Source: Salinirussus salinus
Lineage (GTDB): Archaea > Halobacteriota > Halobacteria > Halobacteriales > Haloarculaceae
Reading direction: 5' to 3'
Length of the DNA: 64,000 nucleotides
NCBI RefSeq assembly: GCF_009831455.1
Contig: NZ_WOWO01000003.1
Location: 682,001-746,000 of the forward strand
Below the pieces are notes generated by a model, which saw nothing but the letters and a program-made list of their open reading frames with translations, searched no databases and was not told the DNA's origin. Within the stretch, counting starts at the first letter, position 1; the number at the start of each line of letters is the position of its first letter. This document shows, piece by piece, positions 6,455 to 33,075 of this stretch. Made by a program: the position numbers and the translations under genes.

Positions 6455-8035
6455 ATGGCTATCGCGGGAAATTCTAACGGCGAACTTGAAAAGAAACTCT
6501 GGGAAACCGCCGAAAAACTACGTGGCCCTGTCGACCCTTCTGAATACAAGGATTTCGCTCTTGGCCTCCTGTTCCTGAAGAATATGTCTGACTCTTTCGA
6601 GGCCCGTAGACAGGAACTCGAAGAGAAGACCCACGACGAAGATTCTCGATACTATACTGAGGACGAGAAGGAACGCGAATACATACTAACCCACAAAGAC
6701 GAATACAAAAGAGAGAACGTATTCTACCTTCCTGAAGAGGCCCGCTGGCAATACTTCGTTGACAACGCCACAGACCCACAGATTGGGAAAAAGATCGACG
6801 ATGCAATGCGGGCAATCGAAGATGAAAACCCGCGCCTCAAAGGGATTCTTCCGAAGGGCTATTCTCGCTCTTCTATAGCCAGTAACGGTTCTGACGCACT
6901 TGAAGGCCTGATCAATTTGTTTGCAGACGTCAATTTGGAAGCGGAGAATGGCAATCAGGATGAGGATATCTTCGGCCGTATCTACGAATACTTTATTAAG
7001 CAGTTCGCTATGAAGGGCGGACAAAAGGGGGGTGAATTCTACACGCCGAAGAGCGTTGTTGAGCTGATGGTTGAAATCTTGGAGCCCTATGAAGGTCGAA
7101 TATTCGACCCATTCAGCGGCTCAGGCGGAATGTTCGTACAGAGCCAGAAATTCATCGAAAGCCACGGGGGAGACACCGACAAAATCTCCATCTACGGTCA
7201 AGAGGTCAAGGAAAGCACCTTACAGATCTCTAAGATGAACCTTTATCTCCGAGGGCTTGACGGGAACATCAAACAAGGAGATAGCATCCTCAATGATCAG
7301 CACAAAGGTCTAGAAGCGGACTATATCATCACGAATCCTCCATTCAATATGAGCGAGTGGGGCAGGGATTCAATCGCAGACGATGATCCCCGTTTCAAAT
7401 ACGGGATGCCGCCATCTAGCAACGCCAACTATGCCTTCATACAGCATATGATTCACCATCTCAACGATACTGGGATGGCAGCCACAGTTATGGCTAACGG
7501 GGCAATGTCTACTCAGAGTAAAGACGGGGAAATTCGAGAAGGAATTATTGAAGATGATCTGTTAGACGCTGTAATCGCCCTCCCGAAGGAACTGTTCTAT
7601 ACTACAAGTATTCCTGCTTGTATATTCATTTTGAGTAAAGGGAAAGAAAAAGACAAATACAGAGATAGAACAGACGAGACTCTATTTGTTGATGCAAGAG
7701 ATCTGTACACGAGTATAAATCGGACTCAAAACACACTTGAAGAAAAACATATAAAGAAAATTACCAGGAAGATCCGAGCCTACAGAGGTGAAGAGGATGC
7801 AGATGAATATTCAGATGAGAAGGGTTTCTGCAAAGTAGCGGAAACTGATGATATCAGAGACAACCGGTATATCATAACCCCGGGAAGGTATGTCGGCGTA
7901 AAAGAGCAAGAAGGCGATGACGAGCCGTTTGAAGTCAAGATGGAGAGACTTTCTGCCGATCTCAGGGAGAGTCTACAAAAGTCAAATGAGCTGCAAGATA
8001 ATATTGAGAAGAATTTGGAGGTGCTTGGATTTTGA
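6455..8035 (+). CDS. hsdM: Type I restriction-modification system methyltransferase subunit
   Basis: 526 residues, the normal HsdM length. It transfers a methyl group from S-adenosylmethionine to adenine N6 at the site chosen by HsdS. Residues 1-150 are the helical HsdM N-terminal domain (LWETAEKLRGPVDPSEYKDF). The catalytic domain has the AdoMet-binding motif FDPFSGSGGMFV near residue 215 and the adenine-methylase motif NPPF near 295. The sequence KGGEFYTPKSVVELMVEILE is the usual HsdM signature before the AdoMet site. The stop overlaps the hsdS start by four bases. An inverted repeat just upstream of the ATG may control the operon. Confident assignment. Confidence 0.96.
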   Translation: MAIAGNSNGELEKKLWETAEKLRGPVDPSEYKDFALGLLFLKNMSDSFEARRQELEEKTHDEDSRYYTEDEKEREYILTHKDEYKRENVFYLPEEARWQYFVDNATDPQIGKKIDDAMRAIEDENPRLKGILPKGYSRSSIASNGSDALEGLINLFADVNLEAENGNQDEDIFGRIYEYFIKQFAMKGGQKGGEFYTPKSVVELMVEILEPYEGRIFDPFSGSGGMFVQSQKFIESHGGDTDKISIYGQEVKESTLQISKMNLYLRGLDGNIKQGDSILNDQHKGLEADYIITNPPFNMSEWGRDSIADDDPRFKYGMPPSSNANYAFIQHMIHHLNDTGMAATVMANGAMSTQSKDGEIREGIIEDDLLDAVIALPKELFYTTSIPACIFILSKGKEKDKYRDRTDETLFVDARDLYTSINRTQNTLEEKHIKKITRKIRAYRGEEDADEYSDEKGFCKVAETDDIRDNRYIITPGRYVGVKEQEGDDEPFEVKMERLSADLRESLQKSNELQDNIEKNLEVLGF

Positions 8036-9333
8036 CTTCCGAGCAAAAAGAGCTAGAGGGATTTGATGAATCTCCCGAAATGGAAGAAAATGAGTGGAAA
8101 GAGGTGATATTCTCAGACGTCATTGAAATAAACGACTACCCATCTGCCGAAAAGGGTGAGGAGTACAAATCTATTGGAATGTCTGATGTAGCACAGAATG
8201 TGAGGAAAATCCAAAGTTGGGAGGTGAAAGAGTATTCTTATTCAAGGCCTCGATTCAGGAATGGCCAGACTTTGATGGCGAGAATCACACCTTGTCTTGA
8301 AAATGGGAAAACCGCTTTTGTAGATATCCTTGATGACGACGAATTAGCTATAGGTTCAACAGAATTCATAGTTTTATCTGACACAAAGGAAACACTCCCG
8401 AAGTTTGTCTACTATACTGCTCGAAGACCGGAGATAAGACAATTCTCTATCAAAAGAATGACCGGAACCTCTGGCAGACAGAGAGTCCCTCTGGATATTT
8501 TTGACGATAAGAAAATAAAAATACCTCCGATAACTGAACAGAAAAAAATAGTAGAGATATTAGATGCCTTTGATAGCAAGATCGAAGTTAACAACAGAGT
8601 TAATGAAAACCTGGAGAAGATCTCAAAAGCTCTTTTCAAATCGTGGTTTGTCGAATTTGAGCCCTATGATACATTCAAAGAGACTGATCTAGGGAAAATA
8701 CCTGAAGATTTTGAGGTTGTAGAATTCTCAGACATCTCTAATACAGAAGGTGGAGGAACCCCCGACACAGAAGAAGACTCATTCTGGGGTGAAGATATTC
8801 TCTGGCTCACTCCAAAAGAAGTGGCTCCGTTGACCTCCTCTGTTGCATTTGACTCTGAGAGGAAACTAACTGAAAAGGGTCTAAAAAATACTTCTGCTAA
8901 GGTAATGCCAAAAAATTCTACTCTCCTATATAGCCGAGGCGCAAATATGGGCGTGTCAGTTATTAATAAGGAACCGATGGCGACAAACCAGGGATTCGTC
9001 TGTGTTGAGCCAGATGGAGTACCCCCTCATTTTCTGTTCCATTTAGTTACATCGAACCGATCTAAAATAGAAAACAGGGCGGGAGGAAGTACCTATCCTG
9101 AGATTAGCCAGACGTCATTTAATGAAATACAGATTGCTATCCCTTCCTCAAAGGATCGTATAAGAAGGTTCGAGAATATTGCTGCTGCTATTTACGAAGA
9201 TGTCTATAATAGGGTTCAAGAAAATGTGTATCTCAGTGAATTGAGGGATACATTACTGCCAAAACTAATGTCGGGTGAGATAAGGGTTAATGACATTAAT
9301 CTTGAGGAATTAGAGGTTAGTAGCGAGGTTTAA
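8032..9333 (+). CDS. hsdS: Type I restriction-modification system specificity subunit
   Basis: 433 residues; TTG start overlaps the hsdM stop (TTTTGA). HsdS carries two target-recognition domains separated by helical spacers. The first domain ends at KKIKIPPITEQKKIVEILDA, followed by the coiled spacer (DSKIEVNNRVNENLEKISKA) and LFKSWFVEFEP. The second starts at IPEDFEVVEFSDIS and ends before the C-terminal spacer, which finishes LRDTLLPKLMSGEIRV, a classic HsdS ending. Codon use is more AT-rich than hsdM, common for the recombining S gene. The recognised DNA sequence cannot be told from this. It lies between M and R with tight spacing. Confidence 0.95.
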   Translation: MTSEQKELEGFDESPEMEENEWKEVIFSDVIEINDYPSAEKGEEYKSIGMSDVAQNVRKIQSWEVKEYSYSRPRFRNGQTLMARITPCLENGKTAFVDILDDDELAIGSTEFIVLSDTKETLPKFVYYTARRPEIRQFSIKRMTGTSGRQRVPLDIFDDKKIKIPPITEQKKIVEILDAFDSKIEVNNRVNENLEKISKALFKSWFVEFEPYDTFKETDLGKIPEDFEVVEFSDISNTEGGGTPDTEEDSFWGEDILWLTPKEVAPLTSSVAFDSERKLTEKGLKNTSAKVMPKNSTLLYSRGANMGVSVINKEPMATNQGFVCVEPDGVPPHFLFHLVTSNRSKIENRAGGSTYPEISQTSFNEIQIAIPSSKDRIRRFENIAAAIYEDVYNRVQENVYLSELRDTLLPKLMSGEIRVNDINLEELEVSSEV

Positions 9334-9339
9334 TCGGTA

Positions 9340-12330
9340 ATGTCTATGAATGAGATGGAGTTGGCGGAGTTACCGGCCCTACAGGCTTTCCAGAATATTG
9401 GATACGACTACAAGCCTGGTTCTGAACTTGGGCCGAATAGTGAAGACCCAGAGCGCACTTCACTTTCTGATGTGGTGCTGCGTGGCCGTCTTGAACGAAA
9501 ACTCCGTGAGATCAATCCATCTCTGCCCGATGAAGCCATCGAGGACGCTATCTCTCAACTCCTCGGTTCCAATTCTCCCGATCTTCTCAAGAATAACAAG
9601 GACTTCCACGAGAAGCTAGTCAACGGTATTCAAGTTGAATATGAGGTAGACGGTGAACCAAGAGGAGACTTCGTCGACGTCTTCAATTTTGAAGAGCCAG
9701 AAAAGAACGATTTCCTGGTCTCAAACCAAGTCGTAATTCAGATTGGGGAAGGCCCGCAGAGAAGGCCTGACGTCATCGTGTTTGTCAACGGTCTTCCCAT
9801 CGCTGTATTGGAGATGAAGGACCCGACGAACCCGCAGGCATCGATGGGTAATGCGTATAAGCAGGTCACGGATCGATATGTGAATGATATTCCGGATCTG
9901 TTCCACTATAACGAGCTTATTGGTATTTTGGATATGAATAATGCCGAGCTCGGATGTCTTAGTGCCGGTTGGGAGTGGTTCTCACCTTGGAGGTATATCG
10001 ATGAGGAAAAAGATGCTACTGACGAGTTACCTCCTTCGGAGGTCTTGATTCGCGGTGCTTTCGACAAGAAGAGACTGCTAGATCTGATCCAGAATTTCAT
10101 ACTATACGCTGATGAGGACGGGAAGCTTGGGAAGAAGCTTGCAGCCTATCACCAGTTCTACGCTGTGAACAGTGCTGTAGAGAGCAGTCGAGAAGTTGTT
10201 CCGAATCCTGACGAGGATCGTATCGGTCTTGTTTGGCACACTCAGGGGTCCGGAAAGTCGCTGTCGATGGTTTTCTACGCGAAGAAGATTCGTGGGGAAA
10301 GCTCGATGAAGAATCCGACTCTTGTCTTCCTTACTGATCGGAATGATCTTGACGACCAACTCTACAAGGAATTCAAGAAGCACGGATTAGATGCTGAGTG
10401 GGCAGATAGTGATAACCGAGTTGAACTCCGTGATAGGTTGGATCGAGAGGCTGGCGGAATTATTTTTGCGACGATCCAGAAGTTCCAGACCACGGACGAC
10501 GAAGTCCAGTATCCGGAAGTCAACGACCGCGAGAATGTAATTGTGGTAGCGGACGAAGCCCATCGCACGCAGTACAAGAGTCTGGCGACAAACGTCCGTG
10601 ACGGGCTCCCCAACGCGTCTCATCTCGGATTCACAGCGACACCTATTGAGAAAGAAGATCGCTCCACTACGAATACGTTCGGTGGCTACATCAGCCAGTA
10701 TACCATCAGAGAGTCGGAAAAGGACGAGTCCACTGTTCCGATATACTACGAGAGCCGATTAGCAAAGCTCCAGATTAACAATCCCGAGATCGAGGACAAG
10801 TTTAACGAGTTGATGGAGTCGAAGTCGGATGATTTGAAGCAGGAGATGAAGAGGAAGTGGACTCAGCTTCGCCGCGTCATTGAGAACAGCGAGGAAAGAA
10901 CGGAGATGATCGCGGATGATATCGTTGAACACTATAATAATAGAGAGATCGAAGGAAAGGCGATGGTGGTTGCAATCAGCCGCCAAGCCGCAGTAAACTT
11001 GAGCAGGAAAATCAGGGCCAACCCAGATGCTCCCGAGACCCGAGTGGTGATTTCAGGACAGGAAGACTTCATCGACGATCCAATCTCAAATGATGAGTTG
11101 AAGCGTCGTTTCAAAGACGACGAAGATCCGTTCGAAATTGCTGTAGTCTGTGACAAGTGGTTAACAGGATTTGACGCTCCGCATCTCCACACGTTGTATG
11201 TTGATAAGCCGATGAAGAATCATAATCTGCTTCAGGCAATCGGCAGAGTCAACCGTGTTTACAAAGACAAGCCAGGAGGCCTGATTGTAGACTACATTGG
11301 CATCAGTAAGAGGCTGAAAGAGGCTTTGGACAAGTACACGTCTGAGGTTCGGAACGACGCGATGCTGGATATAGAAGAGGCTGTGAAGGTGATGAAGGAT
11401 AAGCACAAGAAGGTCGCAGACTTCTTTGCAGCAGTTGATTACAGCGACTGGCCTCAGCTTGAGGAGTTAGAGCGAAAACGGTTGCTCTACAAAGCCCAGA
11501 ACGAGGTACTAGTTACTGAGGAACGTGAGGATAAGTTCCGGGAGTCAATGAAGGAGCTAAAGAAAGCTCACGCATTGGTCACTCCACACTCTGCGGCAAG
11601 TGATATCCGTGCGGATGTGGCCTTCTTTGAAGCCGTTCTTGGAGCGATAAACAGTATTGAAGACTCCAATAATCCGGATGAGATGGAAGACCTAGACTCG
11701 GCTATGAAAGAACTGGTAGCTGAGGGGGTCGGTATCGAAGATCTGATTGAGGTAACTGGTTTCGATAAATGGGAGAAGGAGAAGCCGGTACTGAGTGATG
11801 AGTTCCTTGAGGATGTGGAAGAGGTCGAATTTGAGAATCTTCAGGTCAAGATGCTTCGGCAGTTGCTGGAGAACGAGATTACGACTCGGAAGAAGGGTAA
11901 CTTGGCGAAGTACGAGTCTTTCGAGAAGGAGCTCAAGGAGACGATTGAGAAGTACAATGAAGGGTTTGGTTCCACTCAGCAGGTTATCGATGAGTTGAGA
12001 GATATTGCTGATCGGATTCAGGAGACGGACGACCGGCAGGAGGAACTCGGGTTGAATGATGAGGAGCTTGCGTTCTATGACGCTATTTCTGCGAATACGG
12101 AGACTGAGATCGACGAGGATACCCTGAAGGAGATTGCTCAGGAGCTTAAGCAGAATCTGAAGGATAGTGTTGAGCTTGATTGGACGAATCGGGAGAAAAT
12201 AAGAGCTGAAATACGCTCCGAGGTTAGGTCGGTACTGCGACAGAACGGTTTGAAAATGTATAAGCATGACAATCTAGTTGATCCAATTGTTACCCAGGCA
12301 GAGGCATTTTACGGTGGAGCTGCAGCTTGA
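9340..12330 (+). CDS. hsdR: Type I restriction endonuclease and DNA translocase subunit
   Basis: 996 residues, full length. The N-terminal nuclease has the PD-(D/E)xK pattern in RPDVIVFVNGLPIAVLEMKD (about residues 142-162). The helicase core has Walker A GLVWHTQGSGKSLSMVF near 300, motif II VVADEAHRTQ, motif III LGFTATP, and motif VI region LLQAIGRVNRVY. The C-terminal half is helical and binds the M2S core. It uses ATP to pull DNA and cuts at a distance when sites are unmethylated. It follows hsdS by six bases. All key motifs are present, so the system is probably active. Confidence 0.96.
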   Translation: MSMNEMELAELPALQAFQNIGYDYKPGSELGPNSEDPERTSLSDVVLRGRLERKLREINPSLPDEAIEDAISQLLGSNSPDLLKNNKDFHEKLVNGIQVEYEVDGEPRGDFVDVFNFEEPEKNDFLVSNQVVIQIGEGPQRRPDVIVFVNGLPIAVLEMKDPTNPQASMGNAYKQVTDRYVNDIPDLFHYNELIGILDMNNAELGCLSAGWEWFSPWRYIDEEKDATDELPPSEVLIRGAFDKKRLLDLIQNFILYADEDGKLGKKLAAYHQFYAVNSAVESSREVVPNPDEDRIGLVWHTQGSGKSLSMVFYAKKIRGESSMKNPTLVFLTDRNDLDDQLYKEFKKHGLDAEWADSDNRVELRDRLDREAGGIIFATIQKFQTTDDEVQYPEVNDRENVIVVADEAHRTQYKSLATNVRDGLPNASHLGFTATPIEKEDRSTTNTFGGYISQYTIRESEKDESTVPIYYESRLAKLQINNPEIEDKFNELMESKSDDLKQEMKRKWTQLRRVIENSEERTEMIADDIVEHYNNREIEGKAMVVAISRQAAVNLSRKIRANPDAPETRVVISGQEDFIDDPISNDELKRRFKDDEDPFEIAVVCDKWLTGFDAPHLHTLYVDKPMKNHNLLQAIGRVNRVYKDKPGGLIVDYIGISKRLKEALDKYTSEVRNDAMLDIEEAVKVMKDKHKKVADFFAAVDYSDWPQLEELERKRLLYKAQNEVLVTEEREDKFRESMKELKKAHALVTPHSAASDIRADVAFFEAVLGAINSIEDSNNPDEMEDLDSAMKELVAEGVGIEDLIEVTGFDKWEKEKPVLSDEFLEDVEEVEFENLQVKMLRQLLENEITTRKKGNLAKYESFEKELKETIEKYNEGFGSTQQVIDELRDIADRIQETDDRQEELGLNDEELAFYDAISANTETEIDEDTLKEIAQELKQNLKDSVELDWTNREKIRAEIRSEVRSVLRQNGLKMYKHDNLVDPIVTQAEAFYGGAAA

Positions 12331-12338
12331 CCTAACTG

Positions 12339-12884
12339 ATGGTTAAGATAGTGAATGTAGTTGGTTCTGGCTTTCTACGCAGAGAATTTGATCTTTCTGT
12401 TGTTGCTGAGGATCTTGGTTCCGTAGCTGAGTTCGACCCCGAAAAGTACCCAGCAATGTATGTCAGATTCTCCGAAGATTCCCCACTTGTAACGGTCTAT
12501 CGGACTGGGAAGTTCATTATCACTGGTGCGGGTTCTATTGAGGAATCATACGAATCGAAGGATGGTTTGCTATCTTGTTTGAGTAGTGCTGGTATCGTTT
12601 CTAAAGAGGATTTGGAGTGGTTTAAAATTCAGAATCTGGTTTGTACGACCGTTCTCGGAGATAACTTGAATTTGAGTGCTTTAGCTATTGGTCTGGGTTT
12701 GGAACAGACGGAATATGAGCCGGAGCAGTTCCCAGGCCTGATTTATCGTAATCCTGATTTTGAGTGTGTTGTTCTAATTTTCTCTACGGGTAAGGCGGTG
12801 ATCACAGGTAGCAGTGATTTAGATGATGTAGAGGCTGTTGCTGACTATTTAATCCAGGAGTTATCGAGTCTTCAATTGAACTGA
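12339..12884 (+). CDS. Divergent TATA-box-binding protein on the mobile element
   Basis: 181 residues, the length of archaeal TBP. Two imperfect repeats are plain: the first has VVGSGFLRREFDLSVVAEDL, EFDPEKYPAMYVRF and TGKFIITGAGS; the second has NLVCTTVLGDNLNLSALAIG, EYEPEQFPGLIYRN and LIFSTGKAVITGS. The YxPEQFPGLIYR and SGKxVxTG patterns are the TBP signature. The first repeat is more divergent than the second. It starts eight bases after hsdR and may be in its transcript. Extra TBPs are common in haloarchaea and can direct subsets of promoters; this one might steer expression of the element. DNA-contacting residues in repeat 1 are altered, so specificity may differ. Confidence 0.88.
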   Translation: MVKIVNVVGSGFLRREFDLSVVAEDLGSVAEFDPEKYPAMYVRFSEDSPLVTVYRTGKFIITGAGSIEESYESKDGLLSCLSSAGIVSKEDLEWFKIQNLVCTTVLGDNLNLSALAIGLGLEQTEYEPEQFPGLIYRNPDFECVVLIFSTGKAVITGSSDLDDVEAVADYLIQELSSLQLN

Positions 12885-15350: not shown

Positions 15351-17426
15351 TCAGGCCCAGTTTTCTTGGATGTACTGGTTTGCGTCTTGGATGCTGAGTG
15401 GTCTTGCTGAGCTTCCTTGTCGGACGATGAAGTCGTCTTCTTCGAAGTAGACTGGTTCTGAGCTTGGTTCAACTGAAACGGTGCAGACGGTTTTACCGTC
15501 TATCTCTTTGAAGTCGATTTCTGTGTAGAGCGAGGCTGTTGCGTCTCCGAGTCTTGAGGAGATCTCCTGGCTCAGAGTTACCTCGAAGTCGTCGAGGTCG
15601 TCCATCAGCTTCAGGTCGCGTTCAAGTCCTTTGATTTCTTTGTCGTCGTCGACCCCGATGATGAGTGTGCCCCCTTCCGCGTTGGCGAATGAGGCGATCT
15701 CTTTCACGGCTTCTTTCTTTAGTTCCTTGTTTGCCTGGTTTTGGTAGACGTCGTAGAGAAGTGTTTCCTTGAATTCGATTCTGTAGTTTTCGCCTTTCTC
15801 GATCAGTGATTCGAGCGAAGTCTCTTCCGGGCCTTCTGGCGTGTCGAAGGACTGGATGAATTCGTTGATGGCGTTTGCCAGCATTTCCCGGCGTTCTGCA
15901 AGGAACCGTTCGTAGTTATCCAGTTTCCAGAACTCGGGGTTCTCCGGTATGTACTGTTTCTCAAAGATCTCAGGGTGATCCTCCTTCACGTCGGGGAGGT
16001 AGTCTTCCGGTAGAGAGGTGAAGATGTCTTTGTTGCCTCTGGAGGTGAGGAAAGCCCGGTTTGCTATCTCGTTGACCTTCTTGCGCCCCATGTGGTTGTT
16101 GGAGTCGTAGAGGTTGCCGTAGAGCTGTGATTTCGGGAAGATGTGGTGTGACTCCAGCTTGTAGCTTCCACGTAGTGGTTCTCCGGTTTTCCAGTCGCTG
16201 GGGTTGTTGTTCCTGCTGATGATCCGTACCATATTGTAGAAGTGCTTGCTGGACTTGCCGCGGCCTTCCAGGTCGGAGGGTTGGACTTCGAGGCGTCCTC
16301 TGTCGTCTTTGATTTCTTCCATCAGGTCTTCGACCGGATTCGGTCCACCAAGCAGGGAGAGATCTTTGTCAAGGGTGCTGTCGGTGGAGCGGCTGTATCT
16401 TCTCCACATCATCGCGGAGTACAGCCATTTGAGGAAGGCGTCCTTCTCCTCCCGTGTCATCCTCGCGTCGTTGTCACTGAGGTACTTGATCAGAGGAATG
16501 AGGACTGCTCGGGTGTTGATGTAGCTGGAGTCGGGGATCAGGGCCTCGTTTTCCAGGAAGCTAGTTAGGAAGTCAAGGACTTTATTGACAAGATCCCAGT
16601 TCTGTTTGAGTACGTCTTTCTCCGTATCGTAGACGTGTTCGTAGGTCATACCGTCGGTGACGGCGGCGATCATACATTTGACGTAGAAGTCGAGGTTGAA
16701 GTCGTAGCCGTTCTCCGCCATCATCGTCTGGGTCTTCTTCATCTCCCGGCGGATGTACGGCCACTGGGCGCTCATATGCGCCAGAGCAAGTTCAGCGTCT
16801 CCTAGATCTGTTCCCTGTGAATTGACCTTGTCGAAGAGGTTGATTGCCTGGTGGACGTCAGCAGATTTGCCGAGTTCTTCTTTCGGCATCTGAAGAGAGG
16901 TGATCTTGTTGATTTTCTTCAGCTCCCGGTTGTACTCTTCTGCCTTCTCACCGACTTCGGCATCTTCCTCTGTCGTCTCTTTTGCGATCTGGAATATGCT
17001 AACGTCGTCTTTGAAGCAGTCAATGACCTTCACCCACTCTGGATTGTCCCGAGTGCTCTTGTTCTCGTATTTGAACTCGCCAGAATCCAGATTGAAGTAT
17101 AGATGTCTTGGATCGGTTTGGATATCGTCTTCTGTGTAGTATGGTGGTATGTCGTCCTTGATCATCAGGTACAGTACTGTGAGACGCTGTTGGCCGTCGA
17201 GGAGGACCTTGAACAGTCCGTACTGTTCTCGGTCGACTGCGTCGTTCTTAATCTCAGGAGGATTCTCTGTTTCCCAGATTAGAAGACTCCCTATGGGGTA
17301 TTCTCGGTACAAGGATTTCATCAGTTCTTTCGCTTGGTCCTTGCCCCAGACGTATTCCCGCTGGAACTCAGGGAGAACTATTTCGTTTGACTCAACTTTG
17401 TCAACGAGCTTCCCAATCTCTGGCAT
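15351..17426 (-). CDS. DUF262/DUF1524 (GmrSD-like) restriction protein with C-terminal AlbA_2 domain
   Basis: 691 residues. Residues 1-120 are a DUF262 domain: EFQREYVWGKDQAKELMKSL, YPIGSLLIWE and the nucleotide-binding motif VLLDGQQRLTVLYL. Around residue 420, ESHHIFPKSQLYG and NRAFLTSRGNKDI give the His-Asn nuclease motif of DUF1524/HNH domains. Residues about 535-690 are a third module: NYRIEFKETL, IASFANAEGGTLIIGVDD and DDFIVRQGSSARPL, the AlbA_2 (Schlafen AAA_4-type) domain. GmrSD proteins cut phage DNA carrying modified bases. The extra AlbA_2 module is unusual and may sense nucleic acid. It stands alone on the minus strand between defence genes. Confidence 0.85.
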   Translation of the reverse strand: MPEIGKLVDKVESNEIVLPEFQREYVWGKDQAKELMKSLYREYPIGSLLIWETENPPEIKNDAVDREQYGLFKVLLDGQQRLTVLYLMIKDDIPPYYTEDDIQTDPRHLYFNLDSGEFKYENKSTRDNPEWVKVIDCFKDDVSIFQIAKETTEEDAEVGEKAEEYNRELKKINKITSLQMPKEELGKSADVHQAINLFDKVNSQGTDLGDAELALAHMSAQWPYIRREMKKTQTMMAENGYDFNLDFYVKCMIAAVTDGMTYEHVYDTEKDVLKQNWDLVNKVLDFLTSFLENEALIPDSSYINTRAVLIPLIKYLSDNDARMTREEKDAFLKWLYSAMMWRRYSRSTDSTLDKDLSLLGGPNPVEDLMEEIKDDRGRLEVQPSDLEGRGKSSKHFYNMVRIISRNNNPSDWKTGEPLRGSYKLESHHIFPKSQLYGNLYDSNNHMGRKKVNEIANRAFLTSRGNKDIFTSLPEDYLPDVKEDHPEIFEKQYIPENPEFWKLDNYERFLAERREMLANAINEFIQSFDTPEGPEETSLESLIEKGENYRIEFKETLLYDVYQNQANKELKKEAVKEIASFANAEGGTLIIGVDDDKEIKGLERDLKLMDDLDDFEVTLSQEISSRLGDATASLYTEIDFKEIDGKTVCTVSVEPSSEPVYFEEDDFIVRQGSSARPLSIQDANQYIQENWA

Positions 17427-18004: not shown

Positions 18005-18012
18005 TTTAAATA
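18005..18012 (+). promoter_or_regulatory. TATA box for the candidate ncRNA
   Basis: TTTAAATA in an AT-rich tract, about 30 bases before the predicted 5' end of the structured RNA. This is the usual archaeal TATA spacing. It is far from the integrase ATG (18,274), which argues for a long leader or a separate RNA. Confidence 0.5.
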
Positions 18013-18034: not shown

Positions 18035-18256
18035 AAAGCCAAACGAAGGAAGGAGAGGACTTGAGAAACAGTGAACGGAAAGTAGGTAGCCCCGTCCGGG
18101 CACCCTATCAAGGGTTCACTGTCCTTCAACCGTAATGAGGGGTCTGAACCCCAAGAGAAGCGTTGTGATAAGGGCGTCTGGACAGAGGGTTCAATGTCCT
18201 TTCCCAGCAGTTGATCCATCTGAACCGTGGCTTGTCCTCTCCTTTCCTTCTCTTTG
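18035..18256 (+). ncRNA. Candidate structured RNA enclosed by a 16-bp terminal stem, upstream of the integrase
   Basis: Positions 18,045-18,060 and 18,234-18,250 pair over 16 bp with one bulged base. Inside: a perfect 9-bp stem (18,068-18,076 with 18,114-18,122) capped by a hairpin (18,083-18,107; two 4-bp helices around an internal loop); a 5-bp hairpin with a four-base loop (18,139-18,152); and a 5-bp hairpin with a ten-base loop (18,180-18,199). The core contains an imperfect duplication: AGGGTTCA.TGTCCTT ... TCTGAACC occurs at 18,111-18,150 and again at 18,186-18,226, so GGTTCA and TGAACC can also pair across modules. No reading frame fits. It may be an independent RNA, a structured integrase leader, or DNA arms for the recombinase. 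Confidence 0.55.
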
Positions 18257-18273
18257 AGGTGCAGAACCACTTT

Positions 18274-19512
18274 ATGTCTACTAAACGCTACATCAACGTT
18301 GAGAAACAGCTTGAAAATCTGAAAGACTCAGAACTGGAATCGGCTAATGTAGAGGCGATCCGGAAGTTCATTGATCACAGTGCTGCTGAAGGGATTAGTG
18401 AAGTCCGTCAAAGCCGTTTGATTACTGCTTTGAAGTCTCTAGTGTTGAATTTCGCTCCGGATGATTTTGAGTTGAGCGGAGCTTCTGAGGAGGAACTGAA
18501 ACTGATGATCGCGAATTTGAACAGGAGTGATTATGCCGATTCTACGCAGCATACGATGAGAGCTGCTGCCAAGAAGTTCTATAAGGTGGAGAACGGAGGA
18601 CGTGAGCATCCTGAGAAAGTCGATTTCTTCTCTGCTTCTTCAAGCCAGAAATCGACTGTAAGCCGAGAGGATATCTTCACTGAAGAGGAGTTGAAGCGGT
18701 TGTTCAGCAGTTTCATCAGCACTCGTGACCGTGCATTCACGATGGTTTTATATGAGTCTGCGGCACGTCCTGGTGAGCTTTTATCTCGTAACCTGGGCGA
18801 TTTTACTTCGAATGAGAAGGGGGACTTCATCTATTTGGAGGGGATCAAGGGAACCCCTGATAGGACCAATCAACTGGTTCGTTCTGGGCGTCCTCTACGT
18901 GAGTGGATTGCTCAGCATCCTCTTGGCGGTGAGGTAGGAGATATTGATGATCCCAGTGTCCCCTTGTTTGTCAAAACCCAGCAACAGGAGTGTAAGAAGT
19001 GCGGTAATGTACCTCAACAGCACGGCGATACTAACTGTATGTACGAACCGGATTTGAGAGACAGGTGGAAGTACGATAGCTTTCTCCGCCGGTTCCAAGA
19101 TGCCTGTGAAAGAGCAAGTATCCCTGAGAACAAGCGTCGGCCATACAACCTGCGGCACACCCGACTGACTGAGGTTGCGACGTTTATGGGCTACGAGCAG
19201 TTGAACAAGTTTGCAGGTTGGAAGCCAGGATCGGACAGGGCGAAGGTGTACGTCCACTTGAACAATGACGACGTCAATGAAGCTATCCGAGAAGAATACG
19301 GTTTGAGCGGTGGTGAAGACGAGGACGGAAGCGTTGAATGTTCGTTCTGTGGTGCGGAGAACAGCGATGTCTACTCAGAATGCCGTAACTGCGGAAGAGC
19401 TCTCAGCCTTGAGGATGAGTCTACGAAAGAGGAGAAACAAAACGTTCTGGAGCGATTAGCCGAACTGGAAGACAAGGGTGTATTGGAGAAGCTGGAACAG
19501 CTTGAAGACTAG
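18274..19512 (+). CDS. Tyrosine recombinase (phage/plasmid integrase) with zinc-ribbon tail
   Basis: 412 residues from ATG at 18,274; the frame extends 21 codons upstream but that part falls in the structured leader. Order: N-terminal SAM-like core-binding domain; catalytic domain with the first Arg in ESAARPGELLSRNLGDF, the H-x-x-R box in YNLRHTRLTEVATF, a Trp in FAGWKPGSDRAK and the nucleophile Tyr in KVYVHLNNDD. A Cys motif KKCGNVPQQHGDTNC is inserted in the catalytic domain, and a zinc ribbon ECSFCGAEN...ECRNCGR precedes a coiled C-terminus. It catalyses site-specific recombination. The gene lies 15 kb from the tRNA-Thr scar, so it may serve another site or resolve dimers, or the att-proximal integrase may lie beyond the window. 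Confidence 0.9.
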   Translation: MSTKRYINVEKQLENLKDSELESANVEAIRKFIDHSAAEGISEVRQSRLITALKSLVLNFAPDDFELSGASEEELKLMIANLNRSDYADSTQHTMRAAAKKFYKVENGGREHPEKVDFFSASSSQKSTVSREDIFTEEELKRLFSSFISTRDRAFTMVLYESAARPGELLSRNLGDFTSNEKGDFIYLEGIKGTPDRTNQLVRSGRPLREWIAQHPLGGEVGDIDDPSVPLFVKTQQQECKKCGNVPQQHGDTNCMYEPDLRDRWKYDSFLRRFQDACERASIPENKRRPYNLRHTRLTEVATFMGYEQLNKFAGWKPGSDRAKVYVHLNNDDVNEAIREEYGLSGGEDEDGSVECSFCGAENSDVYSECRNCGRALSLEDESTKEEKQNVLERLAELEDKGVLEKLEQLED

Positions 19513-26561: not shown

Positions 26562-27584
26562 TTACAACGTGGTGAGTTTCACGTCTCGTGTTTTGCCGTT
26601 GCTGCCGCCGTAGTGGTATTCTGCTTCAATCAAGTCGAGTAGTTCCAATTGTTTGAGGTAGTCGCTGAGCCGGCGTTTGGACAATGTGTTCTCGTTGTAG
26701 GTTTTACAGAGTTCTTCGTATCGTGTGTAGATTTCTCCGGTTCGTATCGTGTTTTCTTCGACGTCGAGTTCCTGTACTGCCTGGTAGAGCAGACGGTGGT
26801 GTTCTGTGAACTGGTTGAGGAGGTGTGCGGCGTACTTCTCGTAGGCTTTCTCCTGCACTTGCTGGACGTGGGATTCTGTGATGACTGATTCCGTGGTTTC
26901 GGCTGCGTGTTTCAGCCAGTGTAGTGCGACAGATATGTTCTGGGTAGTGGAGGTGATGTAGGTTAACGCGGCTTTCTGGAGGCTTTGGTCGACAAGTGCT
27001 TTCTGAGCTCTTTCGACGAGGACCTGGTATGCTTCTTCTGCGGTGTAGGGTTCGAAGCTGATTCTTCTGGGTTGGAGGCTGCTGTAGGTTCGTTCCTCGA
27101 TTTGTGATTCGAGTCCGGTGTGGTTGGAGGAGATGAGTACTAGATCTACGCTGTTTCGTGTTTCCATCCTGGTGAGGAAGTAGAGGAGGTCGTCACCGTC
27201 GTTCAGGAGCAGGAAGTCGATGTCGTCGAGGATTATTACGGTGTGTACGGCCTTGGTTTTCTTGACAAGTTTTCTTTGTAGGTCGGAGGTGTGGTGGCCG
27301 TCGTTGACTTCTTCGTTTAGTCCTCTGAGGATCTGTTTGAGTGCCTTGTACTGTGTGTCGTGCTGGGTGCAGGGAATGTAGCATTTCCTGTCGATTTCTT
27401 CGAGTGCAAGGTGTGTGACGTGGGTTTTGCCTGTGCCGCGGGGGCCGTGGAGAAAGAGGTTCTGTGGGGCAGAGTTCTCCGAGGTCAAGGTGTTCAACTG
27501 TTTCTGCTCTTTCTGTCGGTTGTATAGGGTTTCAGGCAGGTAGTTTGGTTGCAGTGGTGTCGGGTCTTTCAGTGGTTCTGGCAT
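26562..27584 (-). CDS. Orc1/Cdc6-family replication initiator
   Basis: 340 residues from ATG at 27,584; an in-frame start 15 codons upstream exists. AAA+ motifs: Walker A NLFLHGPRGTGKTHVTHL, Walker B TVIILDDIDFLL, sensor 1 LVLISSNHTG. The C-terminal 90 residues form a winged helix (TGEIYTRYEELCKTYNENT, LSKRRLSDYLKQLELLDL). It loads the replicative helicase at an origin in archaea. It faces a second Orc1/Cdc6-like gene, and the stretch between holds a 28-bp dyad, so a replication origin of the element may lie here. Codon use is unlike the flanking genes (many CAC/ACA on the antisense side), hinting at separate transfer. Confidence 0.88.
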   Translation of the reverse strand: MPEPLKDPTPLQPNYLPETLYNRQKEQKQLNTLTSENSAPQNLFLHGPRGTGKTHVTHLALEEIDRKCYIPCTQHDTQYKALKQILRGLNEEVNDGHHTSDLQRKLVKKTKAVHTVIILDDIDFLLLNDGDDLLYFLTRMETRNSVDLVLISSNHTGLESQIEERTYSSLQPRRISFEPYTAEEAYQVLVERAQKALVDQSLQKAALTYITSTTQNISVALHWLKHAAETTESVITESHVQQVQEKAYEKYAAHLLNQFTEHHRLLYQAVQELDVEENTIRTGEIYTRYEELCKTYNENTLSKRRLSDYLKQLELLDLIEAEYHYGGSNGKTRDVKLTTL

Positions 27585-27684
27585 AGATGATTTTCTTCGA
27601 GGAAAGGGGTTACACGGTTTTACTGGCACCCAGGTTCGGATGCCGCTTGGTTGAGAACTGCGGCCTTGCTAGTTTTAATTCAGG

Positions 27685-27712
27685 TCCGGAGGTTTCCGCG
27701 GAATGATCCGGA
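27685..27712. repeat. Nested palindrome in the Orc1/Cdc6 intergenic region
   Basis: TCCGGA, three bases, TTCCGCGGAA, three bases, TCCGGA: a symmetric 28-bp array of three palindromes. It lies 101 bases upstream of the minus-strand Orc1/Cdc6 gene and 40 bases before the zinc micro-ORF, next to an AT-rich tract. It could be an initiator-binding site or an operator. Confidence 0.5.
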
Positions 27713-27751
27713 TTCTTTCTTAATACCTGAGGGGTCTAACACGTACCCGTT

Positions 27752-27841
27752 ATGAAGAACTGCGTGAGAGACGATGGCCACGAGCTTGTGAAAGAGGAGC
27801 AGAAAGCGGGCAGGTGTATTTACTGCGGTGAACGGTTGTGA
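27752..27841 (+). CDS. 29-residue zinc-binding microprotein
   Basis: ATG at 27,752 to TGA at 27,839-27,841. The peptide starts MKNCVRDDGHEL and ends RCIYCGERL, giving a Cys-x6-His pair and a CxxC knuckle, enough for one zinc ion. Its TGA overlaps the GTG start of the next gene (GTGA), which supports real translation. Haloarchaea encode many such zinc microproteins. Confidence 0.55.
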   Translation: MKNCVRDDGHELVKEEQKAGRCIYCGERL

Positions 27842-28125
27842 CTTCGGTGTCCCGGCGGTTCGATCCTACGGATTTCACGAAGAACAATCCGTCTACAGAT
27901 ATCAAGTCGCTGCAAGGCAGGACGACAGCTAAACCCTACACACGATCCAACTACTGGCATAGGCAACACGACCGATACGAGTGCTCTGATACTGGTCTCT
28001 CCAAGTGGATAAACGGGCAGACCTTCCAGTGCCTGAATTGTAGCAATAGCATCTGTTGGTACCGTTATCCTAGTGGAGACGGTTTGCCGGAGTGGTTCAA
28101 GAACCCTGGTAATCCGAGCAAGTGA
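27838..28125 (+). CDS. Small zinc-finger-like protein
   Basis: 95 residues, GTG start overlapping the preceding microprotein stop. The C-terminal half has YECSDTGLSKWINGQTFQCL followed by NCSNSICWY: four Cys (C-x18-CxxC-x4-C type) that could bind zinc, plus many aromatic residues. No family recognised. Probably a nucleic-acid or protein-binding partner of the microprotein. Confidence 0.55.
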   Translation: MTSVSRRFDPTDFTKNNPSTDIKSLQGRTTAKPYTRSNYWHRQHDRYECSDTGLSKWINGQTFQCLNCSNSICWYRYPSGDGLPEWFKNPGNPSK

Positions 28126-28193
28126 AACGCCTCCCCTGATCCGGTTTTTGAAACTACCTGTTACAGGTTAGATGATACGAGGCGAAGCCAGCA

Positions 28194-28991
28194 GTGTTCC
28201 AAGAATCAACGAGCAGCGGCGGGATTCTACGTTCGGAAACATACCTGACAACGAACTACGAACCGGATGAACCGGTAGGTCGAGAGACCGAGATCAACAG
28301 GATTGCTGACGCTGTCCGGCCTTTGACGAGGAGAAAGACTCCGGAGAACCTGTTGGTGTACGGCCCGGCCGGAGTCGGGAAGACGACCTGTGTGAAGCAC
28401 GTTTTCGACCGGTTAGAGACAGAGGCCGGTGCAGAATCCGTGTACATCAATGCCTGGCAGTACAACTCCCGCTCCTCACTTCTGACCGAGTTACTGATCC
28501 AGCTCGGGTATCCTGCGCCTCGGAAAGGCAAACCCGTAGATGAACTACTTTCCAAGCTTCGGGAATGGCTAGACAAAAACCGTGGAGTAGCTGTAGCCAT
28601 CGACGAGTTCGACCAGCTAGAGGAGAAGACGGAGATCATCTACGACCTGCAAATGCTGAATCAGGAAGCGGAGAACTCGCTTGGCCTCGTGATGGTTTCC
28701 AACCGGCCTCCCTCCAAGGTCCACCTGGATCCACGGAGCCAATCACGGTTGAACTGCCAGACACTCCAGTTCAACTCCTACAACGCACCGCAGCTCGAAA
28801 AGATACTGTCGAAACGGGTAGAGCAAGCATTCAAGCCCGGAACCGTACCCGACGACGTCCTCGAAGAGATCGCGGAACGGGTGGCAGAGAACAGCGGGGA
28901 CTGTCGAGAAGCACTGGAGAAACTATTGAGGGGTGGGCGGGAAGCGGATCAAGATGGATTGTCAGAGCTTCGGTTAGATTCGAGTAAATGA
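28194..28991 (+). CDS. Short Orc1/Cdc6-like AAA+ ATPase without winged helix
   Basis: 265 residues, GTG start. EPVGRETEINRIADAVRPL is the Orc1/Cdc6 entry motif; Walker A ENLLVYGPAGVGKTTCVKHV, Walker B GVAVAIDEFDQLEEK, sensor 1 LGLVMVSNRPP, and the lid with NSGDCREALEKLLRGG. The protein stops where the DNA-binding winged helix should begin (family length about 400), so it is either truncated or a specialised ATPase that works with the full-length paralogue at 26,562-27,584. It ends three bases before the convergent STAND gene. Confidence 0.85.
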   Translation: MFQESTSSGGILRSETYLTTNYEPDEPVGRETEINRIADAVRPLTRRKTPENLLVYGPAGVGKTTCVKHVFDRLETEAGAESVYINAWQYNSRSSLLTELLIQLGYPAPRKGKPVDELLSKLREWLDKNRGVAVAIDEFDQLEEKTEIIYDLQMLNQEAENSLGLVMVSNRPPSKVHLDPRSQSRLNCQTLQFNSYNAPQLEKILSKRVEQAFKPGTVPDDVLEEIAERVAENSGDCREALEKLLRGGREADQDGLSELRLDSSK

Positions 28992-28994
28992 ATA

Positions 28995-31900
28995 CTAGAA
29001 GTCTTTGAACCGGTTTTCGCGTTGTTCTACGTCTTTGAGTAGGTAGTCTTCTGCTTCTTCCGCAAACCTGTGGATAGAAGACGAGAGTGAAGAGTCTCGT
29101 TGCCAGTTTCTCACCATCTCCAATTCGTCTTCTTTCATATCCACGCCCATACTTGGTGTCGTCAGAGGATCTGAGGAGAGCCCGGTGAGGATCTCGTTTT
29201 TGACGGTTTCAGAGCTGTTGATGTCGTCAACTCCTTCTGTGATGATTATGAGGTAGATCTCTTCGATGTCTTCTGTGACTGGGTACTGTCTAACGTACCA
29301 GATGATATGCATCAGCTCGTCCTCGGAACAGTCCGGTATCTCTTGTGTGAGTCTTTCTGCGAGGTCTGCTGTAGGGAAGCAACGGGTTAGGGCAGAGAAT
29401 CCTATTGGGTTGTAGTAGTCGGCGTCGAGGATACGGCTGGCGACTTCATCTACGGCATTACTGTACCCCTCGGCCTGTGTCATCCTTTCGGTATCTACAT
29501 CTATGTGAGCCGGAAGGATCGAGGTTCCTGTGTGCCCGTTTTCCAGTCGCTGGAGGCAGAAGTCGACGAACTGTTCCGGGTCTCGTTCAGCGACTTCTTC
29601 GATTGCGAGCTTAAGGCCGTGAGGTTCATTGGCAAAGTTTTCTCTGTCTTCTGCGTAGTCCAGTACCTCTTTTAGAATATCCTCGCCCACTTCTTGTGAA
29701 TCGTCTTTGTGTAATGGAAGGGGCTGGAGTACGGCTTTGATCGACCGAGGTTCAAGTGATTCTGCGCCTTGCAGAAGGGTGAGGAGGACGTTTTCTGTCC
29801 ATTCTTGGTGGTCTTCCCAGTATCCGTGTACTACTTGACTGAGGCCGGACACAAGTTCTGGAGGTATCTCGGATCTATCTTCCAGTAGTTCGTTGACGTT
29901 TTCTTTGGCGAAGTCCAGGTCTTGGGTGGCTAAGGCACTGAGTCCTGCGGATATCAGGTTGAACCTCTCTTCTTCGGTGTACTGTTCTACAAGTTCTTTT
30001 CCCTTCTCTGGGTCAGTGGAGCAGATCCCCACGAGGATCTGTGGTTTACACGAATCGAGCCCTTGGGCATCGGCTTCGAGAAGTTTTTCTCCATATTCAG
30101 GTCGCTCGTCTGCCAGGACTCTGAAGAACTGGTGGAAGGATGTGTTCGTGAGCTCTGAGACGATATTTGAGAAGTCGGATGGTTCGAGTTCTTCTTCGTC
30201 CAGGTCTTCCGCGAAACTACGGATCTCGGCTTCCCGTTCTTCCATCTTCGTAGGAGGGTTGTACCTCATATTCTGGAGTAGCCGGAATCTCTCGTTCTCC
30301 GCTAACGCCTCTTCGAGTTCTTGGACTTCGGATTCGATGCCGAGTTCTTTTGCGTTTTCGCGGTCAGCTAACTTGCTCAGGGTATCGATACACTGCAAGT
30401 CTTGGTCCTGTGAGACGTATTCTGAGGCGAATTCGAGAATCCGGACTAGTTCGTCGTTGCTGATAACTTCTTGATGTTTGCCGTGGTGTCTGGCCTGTGA
30501 GTTCTCGAAGCTCACCAGTTTCTTCGCAGCCTTTCTCCTTAATTCGGGGTGAGGGTCTTCCCAGATAATCTCGATAAGATGTTCGACGGCTTGCTTCCGT
30601 AGCTCAATCCGTGGTTCCGTCATTCGTAGGTCTCCTTGCCAAGACCGCATCTTGGAGTGATCGACCGGATCAACGGAGAAGTCGTGTATCTCTATCTTAG
30701 AGGTTTCACCTATGATGTCAAGGAGGTCAAGCCGGAGCTCTTTCTCGATTTCTTCGTTGAGAAAGTTTTCCCCGATCACTTTCAAGATCTTTTGCTGTGC
30801 GGCAGGTGATCTACGGAGACCGGGTCGCATCGCCTGCTTGAGCTTCTGTTCTACGCTTTCGGTTCGAAGCTGTGACTGTGATGGATAGTCTACTGCGATC
30901 CGGAGCAACCAGACTGCCGCCTCTTCCGGTTCCCCCTGTAGAGCGTTGGAAAGTAGGTCGATAGATTCGATTATGAAGTCTCCGGCTGGGGATGCCGTGT
31001 ACATCGAACTCCTAATTAACGGTTCGTCTTCCTGGTCCTCCGGCAGTTCTTCCCGGAACGATTTTTTGAATAGTTCGATAGCGTGGTGTGGATACACTGA
31101 GCCCAGAACCTTGAATCTGCGAAGGAGTTTCACCCTTTCTGCGAAGCCATATTCACTTAGCTGCTCTAATTCTGAATCCAAGGCCTCTCGAATGGTTCTC
31201 CGAGCGTCCCTACAGTCGTATCGTCGATGGATTACAGCTAACTGGTTGATCTGGTTCTTCCCTGTGAACTCGCTGAAATTCTCGTAGATTTTGTCTTTAT
31301 AGTCTCGTGGAGAATCCGAGAAGAAACTGTCATAGACTATGTATTCTTGTAGCGCATCCGGTTGGATGGTAAGGGTTCCACCGCGTTCGGTAACCATTCC
31401 GATGTGCTCAGTCAGCGTTTCTCGAAGGTTTTCCTCCGTTGTACTGTCGATGTTTAGTACATCTCGGAATCGCTGTATCTGCTCATCGTTGTTAGTATCG
31501 AGTTCTCCAACTGCTGCAAGGTATTTTACGTAGGTTTCCAGGTCTTGCGAGTCTCCAACGGTATCCAGTCGCTGGATATCTTTGAGGACGTCCTCGAATA
31601 CCTCCTCTAACACTTCATCCTGCGCCATAGAGTCGGCTTGTTCTCCTCTAGAGCGTTGTTCAGCGAGGAGATGTGCGTAGAGAGGGATGCCTTCACTGAT
31701 CGCTGTAATCCGCTCAAGCGTAGATGGATCAGTGATTCCATAGTACTCCTGCAAGACTTGATGTACGTCGTCAGTATCTAGCCTAGGGAGCTCGACTATG
31801 TCTGTTTCAACACCTCTTAGCCGGTTTCCGTGGCTTTGTAATGTAGAGGTGAAGTGTGATCTCTCCGCGAAAATCAGTTTGAGTCGGGGCTGATGCTGAT

Positions 31901-32961: not shown

Positions 32962-33033
32962 AATACAGAGAGAATACGTGTCGTCTGAAGACGGTCAAAA
33001 TGCCGTTTTCAGGCCACGAAACATATCAACGTC

Positions 33034-33075
33034 TTGGTAAGGACGAGAGCCCGGGTTCAAATCCCGGCCTAGGCT
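33034..33075 (+). other. 3' half of tRNA-Thr(GGU): element attachment site (attR)
   Basis: TTGGTAA (anticodon loop, anticodon GGT), GGACG (3' strand of anticodon stem), AGAGC (variable loop), T arm CCGGG-TTCAAAT-CCCGG, acceptor strand CCTAGGC and discriminator T at 33,075. The 5' half is missing: upstream bases do not form the anticodon stem in register or any D arm. This is the duplicate 3' end left when an element integrates in a tRNA gene. Because the fragment keeps its 3' end to the right, the element lies to the left and the complete tRNA should be at its far end, outside the window. Confidence 0.8.

What the first reader, a model, noticed from the sequence alone, without database searches (positions are those of the whole stretch)
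18035..18256. Undescribed structured RNA (or recombination site) with a duplicated core upstream of an integrase
A 16-bp near-perfect stem closes about 206 nt; inside are a perfect 9-bp stem with a branched cap and two more hairpins. The core contains an imperfect duplication about 75 nt apart (AGGGTTCA.TGTCCTT ... TCTGAACC), so four six-base blocks can pair in alternative ways, as in a switch. A TATA box lies at the right distance and no protein frame fits. The model explains nearly every base between the phosphatase and the integrase. It may be an RNA that controls integrase, a riboswitch-like leader, or arm sites for the recombinase.
Basis: partly seen in the sequence, partly recalled or inferred. 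Interest (0 to 1): 0.7.

Follow-up and report, generated by a model that had tools for sequence, protein, structure and literature searches.

The report
Second integrase's attachment site, folded and transcribed
The folded stretch in front of this integrase gene is most likely the integrase's own DNA attachment site, lying inside its promoter and mRNA leader, so that inserting the element into a tRNA gene cuts the stretch in two; it is not a free-standing regulatory RNA.

Summary
The 222 bases fold to -87.3 kcal/mol (z -4.4), and the same architecture precedes the same tyrosine recombinase ("int2") in about 25 haloarchaeal genomes and, split, in one nanohaloarchaeal genome. It was never found without int2 except at a contig end. 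A TATA box sits 26-30 nt before it, and most int2 genes have an SD-like GTGA/GAGG just before the start codon, so it is probably int2's promoter and leader.

The decisive result is a nanohaloarchaeal MAG in which the locus is cut in two. Its 5' half (with TATA) and its 3' half (with int2) lie at opposite ends of an inserted element. Each half is joined to the 3' end of the same tRNA-Met gene and they share a 14-nt core at the central hairpin. The locus is therefore int2's attP. In 24 homologues that core resembles tRNA 3' tails better than any of 90 other offsets. The window's element itself entered tRNA-Thr beside a different integrase, so its int2 site is intact.

Core-to-flank complementarity co-varies and the transcribed strand folds better, which favours a single-strand fold. 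The long outer stem shows no G-U preference and may instead be inverted protein-binding arms. Whether the RNA itself acts is open.

The parts
18005..18012 (+). TATA box (TTTAAATA) of the int2 promoter
   Evidence: A TATA-like box ends 26-30 nt before the CAANNGAA motif in 21 of 24 homologues as scored automatically
18040..18047 (+). First CAANNGAA motif (CAAACGAA), predicted near the transcript start
   Evidence: Present at a fixed position in nearly all homologues; start site inferred from TATA spacing only
18045..18060 (+). Left arm of the terminal inverted repeat / 5' strand of P1
   Evidence: Arms co-vary: native -25.6 vs permuted -20.1 +/- 0.69 kcal/mol, 0/20000; no G-U preference
18234..18250 (+). 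Right arm of the terminal inverted repeat / 3' strand of P1
18069..18078 (+). X: TGAAC-containing strand pairing with 18112-18120
18089..18101 (+). Hairpin H (GCCC-CGTCC-GGGC), site of strand exchange by homology with the split copy
   Evidence: a-b complementarity kept through sequence change
18090..18102 (+). attP core, 13 nt resembling a tRNA 3' tail (CCCCGTCCGGGCA; 11/13 to the own-genome tRNA-Glu(TTC) tail CCCCGACCGAGCA)
   Evidence: Homologous to the 14-nt attL/attR core of the nanohaloarchaeal element; tRNA-tail resemblance peaks at this offset in 24 homologues
18112..18118 (+). Y1: conserved GGGTTCA, 9 nt after the core
18120..18124 (+). c1: segment complementary to the end of the core (b)
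   Evidence: b-c complementarity follows the core through target change, 0/20000 permutations as good
18139..18152 (+). Hairpin Q (GGGG-TCTGAA-CCCC); GGCC/GGCC, TTGG/CCAA and GGTC/GGCC in homologues
   Evidence: Read off sequences
18152..18159 (+). CAANNGAA motif (CAAGAGAA)
18179..18199 (+). Duplicated module: hairpin TGGAC-AGAGG-GTTCA with second Y (18187-18193) and TGTCC
   Evidence: absent from the short (about 150-nt) forms
18217..18226 (+). Motif CATCTGAA and Z strand TGAACC pairing with Y2
18256..18260 (+). SD-like GAGGT before the int2 start codon
   Evidence: An SD-like GTGA/GAGG/GGAG lies 6-13 nt before the start codon in 21 of 24 homologues
18274..19512 (+). int2: tyrosine recombinase (412 aa) with internal Cys/His cluster and C-terminal zinc ribbon
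   Evidence: PF00589 4e-8, PF02899, PF13240; RH and Y residues invariant in 18 homologues
33033..33075 (+). Right end (attR) of the ~48-kb element at tRNA-Thr(GGT), attributed to the element's other integrase
   Evidence: 43-bp direct repeat of the tRNA-Thr 3' part at contig 3: 666702-666745; other integrase by the left end

Best explanation
This is the attP site of int2, a second tyrosine recombinase of a ~48-kb mobile element, built into int2's promoter and mRNA leader. The central hairpin carries a 13-14-nt core like the 3' end of a tRNA gene; int2 exchanges strands there with such a gene. SHOWN: in one nanohaloarchaeal genome the locus is split at that core, 5' half at one end of the element, 3' half plus int2 at the other, each joined to the same tRNA-Met. 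SUPPORTED: a TATA box and an SD-like site make the locus a transcribed leader; a single-stranded fold at and after the core is kept. INFERRED: int2 itself did the crossover; integration severs int2 from its promoter; the leader folds one way when intact (core paired with the tract behind it) and another when cut, so int2 output can follow the integration state. The long outer arms are probably inverted protein-binding sites.
For: Split copy: tRNA-Met 3' end | 3' half | int2 on one contig with host-side genes and tRNA-Val; TATA | 5' half | CCCGGCTTTCCCAT | tRNA-synthetase gene on another, whose other side matches the haloarchaeal element. Core resembles tRNA 3' tails: mean mismatch 3.92 of 13, best of 91 offsets (next 5.29), shuffled 5.65 +/- 0.22, 0/2000. 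Locus found only before int2, apart from one contig end. TATA and SD-like sites. Core-flank complementarity tracks the core, 0/20000; a-b 18/20000; arms co-vary; + strand folds better, Wilcoxon p 0.003, consensus -12.3 vs -7.4.
Against: Only one integrated copy is known and it comes from a MAG with the two junctions on separate contigs. The window's own core has no exact 13-nt tRNA match in its genome or 115 relatives (no tRNA at the hits). The discriminator position was set by eye in the most divergent class, which helps the tRNA-tail statistic. Homologues are related, so the permutation p values are optimistic. No transcript data. In the outer arms mismatches are G-U 12, A-C 23, transversions 51, not what an RNA stem predicts.
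Confidence: 0.77

Rival explanations
1. DNA-only attP (a narrower version of the best explanation): the inverted repeats are binding sites for int2 and helper proteins, and the predicted RNA fold is a by-product of that symmetry; the transcript has no role of its own.
For: Outer arms behave like paired DNA sites with no G-U preference. X-Y shows no co-variation and Y-Z little, as expected for a repeated conserved motif (TGAACCG). attP sites of about 240 bp with multiple binding sites are known (PMC8371274), and att regions overlapping an int promoter are common (PMC2951348).
Against: Core-flank (b-c) and a-b complementarity is kept while both sequences change with the target, which a fixed protein site does not need; the transcribed strand folds better than its complement.
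Confidence: 0.4
2. RNA-assisted recombination: the transcript of the locus binds int2 and pairs with attP and the tRNA gene through the segments complementary to the core, as a bridge RNA does for IS110 recombinases.
For: The RNA lies directly 5' of the recombinase gene; two segments (a, c) are complementary to the core shared by donor and target and follow it; int2 has extra zinc-binding motifs.
Against: In the one known integration c matches an attP-specific base beyond the core (CCCATT) better than the target (CCCATC), so b-c looks intramolecular. I know of no tyrosine recombinase that needs RNA. No guide to the left half of the core was found.
Confidence: 0.06
3. Folded single-stranded DNA site: the element enters as a single strand (conjugation) and the hairpin is the substrate, as for integron attC sites.
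For: Hairpins around the core are kept on one strand; the element carries a large P-loop ATPase of possible transfer type (sequence motif only; no Pfam hit).
Against: No relaxase or transfer origin was identified here; the conserved promoter is not explained.
Confidence: 0.06
4. Free regulatory RNA or riboswitch leader with no attachment role; the split copy is an accident of assembly or deletion.
For: Strong fold, TATA box and SD-like site.
Against: Both halves meet the same tRNA end with a shared 14-nt core at the homologous point; the tRNA-tail likeness of that point recurs in relatives with different best-matching tRNAs.
Confidence: 0.05

Closest known systems
Classical archaeal tRNA-targeting integrases, SNJ2 type (Liu 2015 and Wang 2018, as reviewed in PMC8371274)
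   Same: Haloarchaeal tyrosine recombinase with SAM-like plus catalytic domain; att core of about 13 bp at the very 3' end of a tRNA gene
   Different: No SNJ2 record among int2's tblastn hits in the phage collection; C-terminal zinc ribbon; attP is a ~150-290-bp conserved folded region; sits in an element that already has another integrase
KplE1 IntS module, att region overlapping the int promoter (PMC2951348)
   Same: Recombination region overlaps the promoter of the integrase gene, so site and expression are coupled
   Different: There the promoter stays with int in the prophage (attL); here integration separates promoter and int2. Repression by int2 has not been tested
Lambda-type attP (about 240 bp; PMC8371274)
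   Same: Large site beside int with a short core and flanking repeats
   Different: int2 shows no added N-terminal arm-binding domain (helical core-binding domain starts at residue 9; low-confidence model)
IS110 bridge RNA (PMC11208160, PMC11208158)
   Same: Structured RNA encoded directly next to a recombinase with segments complementary to the recombining core
   Different: Different recombinase family; no evidence that the RNA takes part; pairing looks internal
Pleolipovirus integrases of ThalV2 and GacPV1
   Same: Best phage-collection matches (27-28%); int follows a short intergenic region
   Different: Intergenic regions of about 76 and 181 nt lack the arms and overall fold

Membership tests
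attP site of a tyrosine recombinase | Site is cut and joined to host DNA at both ends of an integrated element | tested here: met
   One nanohaloarchaeal MAG, both junctions
attP site of a tyrosine recombinase | Core shared with the target | tested here: met
   CCCGGCTTTCCCAT in attL and attR; tRNA-tail likeness in relatives; not exact for the window's own core
attP site of a tyrosine recombinase | Cognate recombinase gene adjacent | tested here: met
   All inspected hits except one at a contig end
attP site of a tyrosine recombinase | Recombination by the enzyme in vitro or in vivo | not testable with these tools
   No experiment
Structured non-coding RNA family | Transcript | not testable with these tools
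   Only promoter position
Structured non-coding RNA family | Compensatory change in stems | tested here: inconclusive
   a-b and b-c yes; outer arms co-vary without G-U preference; X-Y no
Structured non-coding RNA family | Match to a described family | tested here: not met
   No Rfam 15 match; best hit E 1.2, far below its gathering score
IS110-type bridge RNA system | IS110-type recombinase | tested here: not met
   int2 is PF00589 Phage_integrase
SNJ2-like integrase | Sequence similarity to SNJ2 integrase | tested here: inconclusive
   Not among tblastn hits at E 0.01 in the phage collection; presence of SNJ2 in that collection was not checked and no profile was tried
Lambda-type heterobivalent integrase | N-terminal arm-binding domain before the core-binding domain | tested here: inconclusive
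   SAM-like domain from residue 11; model of low confidence

The most novel reading that the evidence does not exclude
The transcript across attP is a working part of the system: an RNA whose fold reads whether the element is integrated, or that helps int2 find a tRNA target, with segments that co-evolve with the core so that the element can change target tRNA.
Probability: 0.15. Interest if true: 0.92.

Novelty: new variant of a known kind. Interest (0 to 1): 0.58.

Why it matters
It explains a striking fold and describes a recombination module for which the searches made here found no earlier account: a folded, probably transcribed attP whose core is retuned to different tRNA ends while its flanks stay complementary to it. 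The element has two integration systems; the same kind of element sits in haloarchaea by one integrase (tRNA-Thr or tRNA-Gly) and in a nanohaloarchaeon by the other (tRNA-Met), which suggests a route by which elements cross between hosts in brines. It also warns that long inverted repeats next to integrases can look like structured RNAs.

Tried and rejected
Rfam: nothing. Exact window core and the GCGGGTCCTGCCA core in 116 genomes each: about background-level hits, none at a tRNA among the loci checked. attP at the window element's own ends: rejected, those ends are at tRNA-Thr with another integrase beside one of them. int2 as the enzyme of the tRNA-Thr/Gly insertions: less likely, a PF00589 integrase lies 0.8 kb from the tRNA-Thr end. 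Plasmid and viral collections: no close int2. Model-driven alignment A3 too noisy to count pairs on. AlphaFold model of int2: mean pLDDT 52.6, not used for fold search. Papers on an RNA with a tyrosine recombinase or a structured RNA by a haloarchaeal integrase: none to the point.

Full report
OBSERVATION. The window lies in a genome close to Halonotius pteroides (99% identical int2). It is single-copy and has no Rfam match.

CONSERVATION. Searching with the downstream recombinase (int2, 18274-19512) gave 22 loci in public genomes. The region before int2 is recognisably related in 17 of them; the others are cut, rearranged or partial. Two forms exist: a short one (about 150 nt, one core) and longer ones (about 220-290 nt), which in the window's group carry a second copy of the GGGTTCA module. 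A covariance model from ten short-form sequences found the region in 18 of 392 Halobacteriales genomes. In ten of the eleven hits inspected for it, int2 (62-89% identical) begins directly after the region; the eleventh ends at a contig end. A TATA-like box lies 26-30 nt before the first CAANNGAA motif in 21 of 24 as scored automatically, and an SD-like GTGA/GAGG/GGAG lies 6-13 nt before the int2 start in 21 of 24. Haloarchaeal genes are often leaderless (general knowledge), so the SD-like site suggests a leadered int2 mRNA. CAANNGAA recurs at near-fixed positions.

THE ELEMENT. int2 sits in a low-GC island. Its ends are a 43-bp direct repeat of the 3' part of tRNA-Thr(GGT): contig 3, 666702-666745, and window 33033-33075, about 48.3 kb apart. 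Another PF00589 integrase lies 0.8 kb from the tRNA-Thr end. Related elements sit at tRNA-Thr or tRNA-Gly(CCC), with the repeat starting at the anticodon loop. The backbone around the locus is a large ATPase gene, cargo, the locus, int2, cargo, and small genes. So int2 is a second recombinase and the locus is intact in these integrated copies.

THE SPLIT COPY. In a Nanohaloarchaea MAG, int2 (67%) and the 3' half of the locus directly follow the 3' end of an intron-containing tRNA-Met gene (read by eye; ARAGORN called only the tRNA-Val before it), with what look like helicase and pyrophosphatase genes and the tRNA-Val on the host side. The covariance model then found the missing 5' half, with its TATA box, on another contig of the same MAG, ending in CCCGGCTTTCCCAT, the last bases of that tRNA gene plus one, followed by what reads as a glutamyl-tRNA synthetase gene. 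Sequence to the left of that half matches the haloarchaeal element at several places. The two halves complement each other exactly at the central hairpin. This is the pattern of attL and attR, so attP is the hairpin inside the locus. int2 is the natural enzyme, by adjacency; this step is inferred.

THE CORE IN OTHER COPIES. At the homologous 13 nt (T-stem 3' strand, acceptor 3' strand, discriminator) 24 homologues resemble tRNA 3' tails of the window's genome: mean mismatch 3.92, against 5.29 or more at 90 other offsets and 5.65 +/- 0.22 for shuffled cores (0 of 2000 as low). Best matches differ between copies: tRNA-Glu for the window's group (11/13), a tRNA-Gly(CCC) tail for one, tRNA-Ala-like ends (GTCCA) for several. 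Caveats: the end position was chosen by eye in the divergent class, the tRNA set is that of one genome, and the exact window core is at no tRNA in 116 genomes. A short imperfect match may suffice, or the present host may not be the usual target.

RNA OR DNA. For a single-strand fold: complementarity between the core end b and the later segment c is kept as both change (mean run 4.96 vs 3.78 permuted, 0/20000); a-b is kept (42 of 56 pairs vs 32.9, 18/20000); the + strand folds better than the - strand in 18 of 23 homologues (Wilcoxon p 0.003) and in the consensus (-12.3 vs -7.4). Against: the outer arms co-vary strongly, but with equal penalties their mismatches are G-U 12, A-C 23 and transversions 51, so they look like inverted DNA sites; X-Y shows no significant co-variation and Y-Z little (3544 and 576 of 20000). 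All these tests treat related sequences as independent. I conclude that the locus is a site first, and that a fold at and after the core is probably kept as well; whether in RNA or in single-stranded DNA is not settled, the promoter favouring RNA.

MECHANISM PROPOSED. Free element: transcription from the TATA box makes the leader and int2; int2 recombines attP with a tRNA 3' end. Integrated: promoter and 5' half go to one end, int2 and the 3' half to the other, behind the tRNA, so int2 loses its promoter and segment c loses its intramolecular partner. That would make int2 output depend on integration state (inferred, untested).

KNOWN RELATIVES. tRNA-end cores of about 13 bp are described for SNJ2 integration, and attP sites of about 240 bp with several binding sites for lambdoid phages (PMC8371274). 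Overlap of an att region with an int promoter is described for KplE1 and many prophages (PMC2951348). A structured RNA beside a recombinase, giving specificity for its sites, is described for IS110 (PMC11208160). The present case combines parts of these but meets the defining tests of none beyond 'attP of a tyrosine recombinase'. No paper on such a module was found in the searches made.

Noticed in passing
window 12339-12884: A TATA-binding protein gene (PF00352, E 4e-41) carried by the element, just before the large ATPase gene; close copies at about the same place in two relatives.
   Followed up: partly
window 33033-33075 (and contig 3: 666702-666745): 43-bp direct repeats of tRNA-Thr(GGT) marking the ends of the ~48-kb element; a different integrase lies beside the left end.
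   Followed up: yes
window 6455-12330, 15351-17426, 28995-32753: Defence-like cargo: HsdM (6455) and HsdR (9340) of a type I restriction system with a gene between them in the place of HsdS, a GmrSD-AlbA_2 protein, and a large STAND-like NTPase. Cargo between ATPase and int2 differs between relatives.
   Followed up: partly
window 26562-28991: Two Orc1/Cdc6-type genes facing opposite ways, suggesting the element can replicate by itself.
   Followed up: no
own genome contig 4: 595400-597900 (L216): A dense array of about ten mostly low-scoring tRNA-like genes, unlike the chromosomal set.
   Followed up: no
L081 1954-3771: Halorutilus salinus: tRNA-Gly(CCC) followed by an integrase-like reading frame whose C-terminal half is int2 (72%) while the upstream part looks unrelated, possibly a hybrid.
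   Followed up: no
L300 and L182: The nanohaloarchaeal tRNA-Met gene used as target appears to carry an intron; recombination with tRNA genes has been proposed to move introns (PMC8371274).
   Followed up: no
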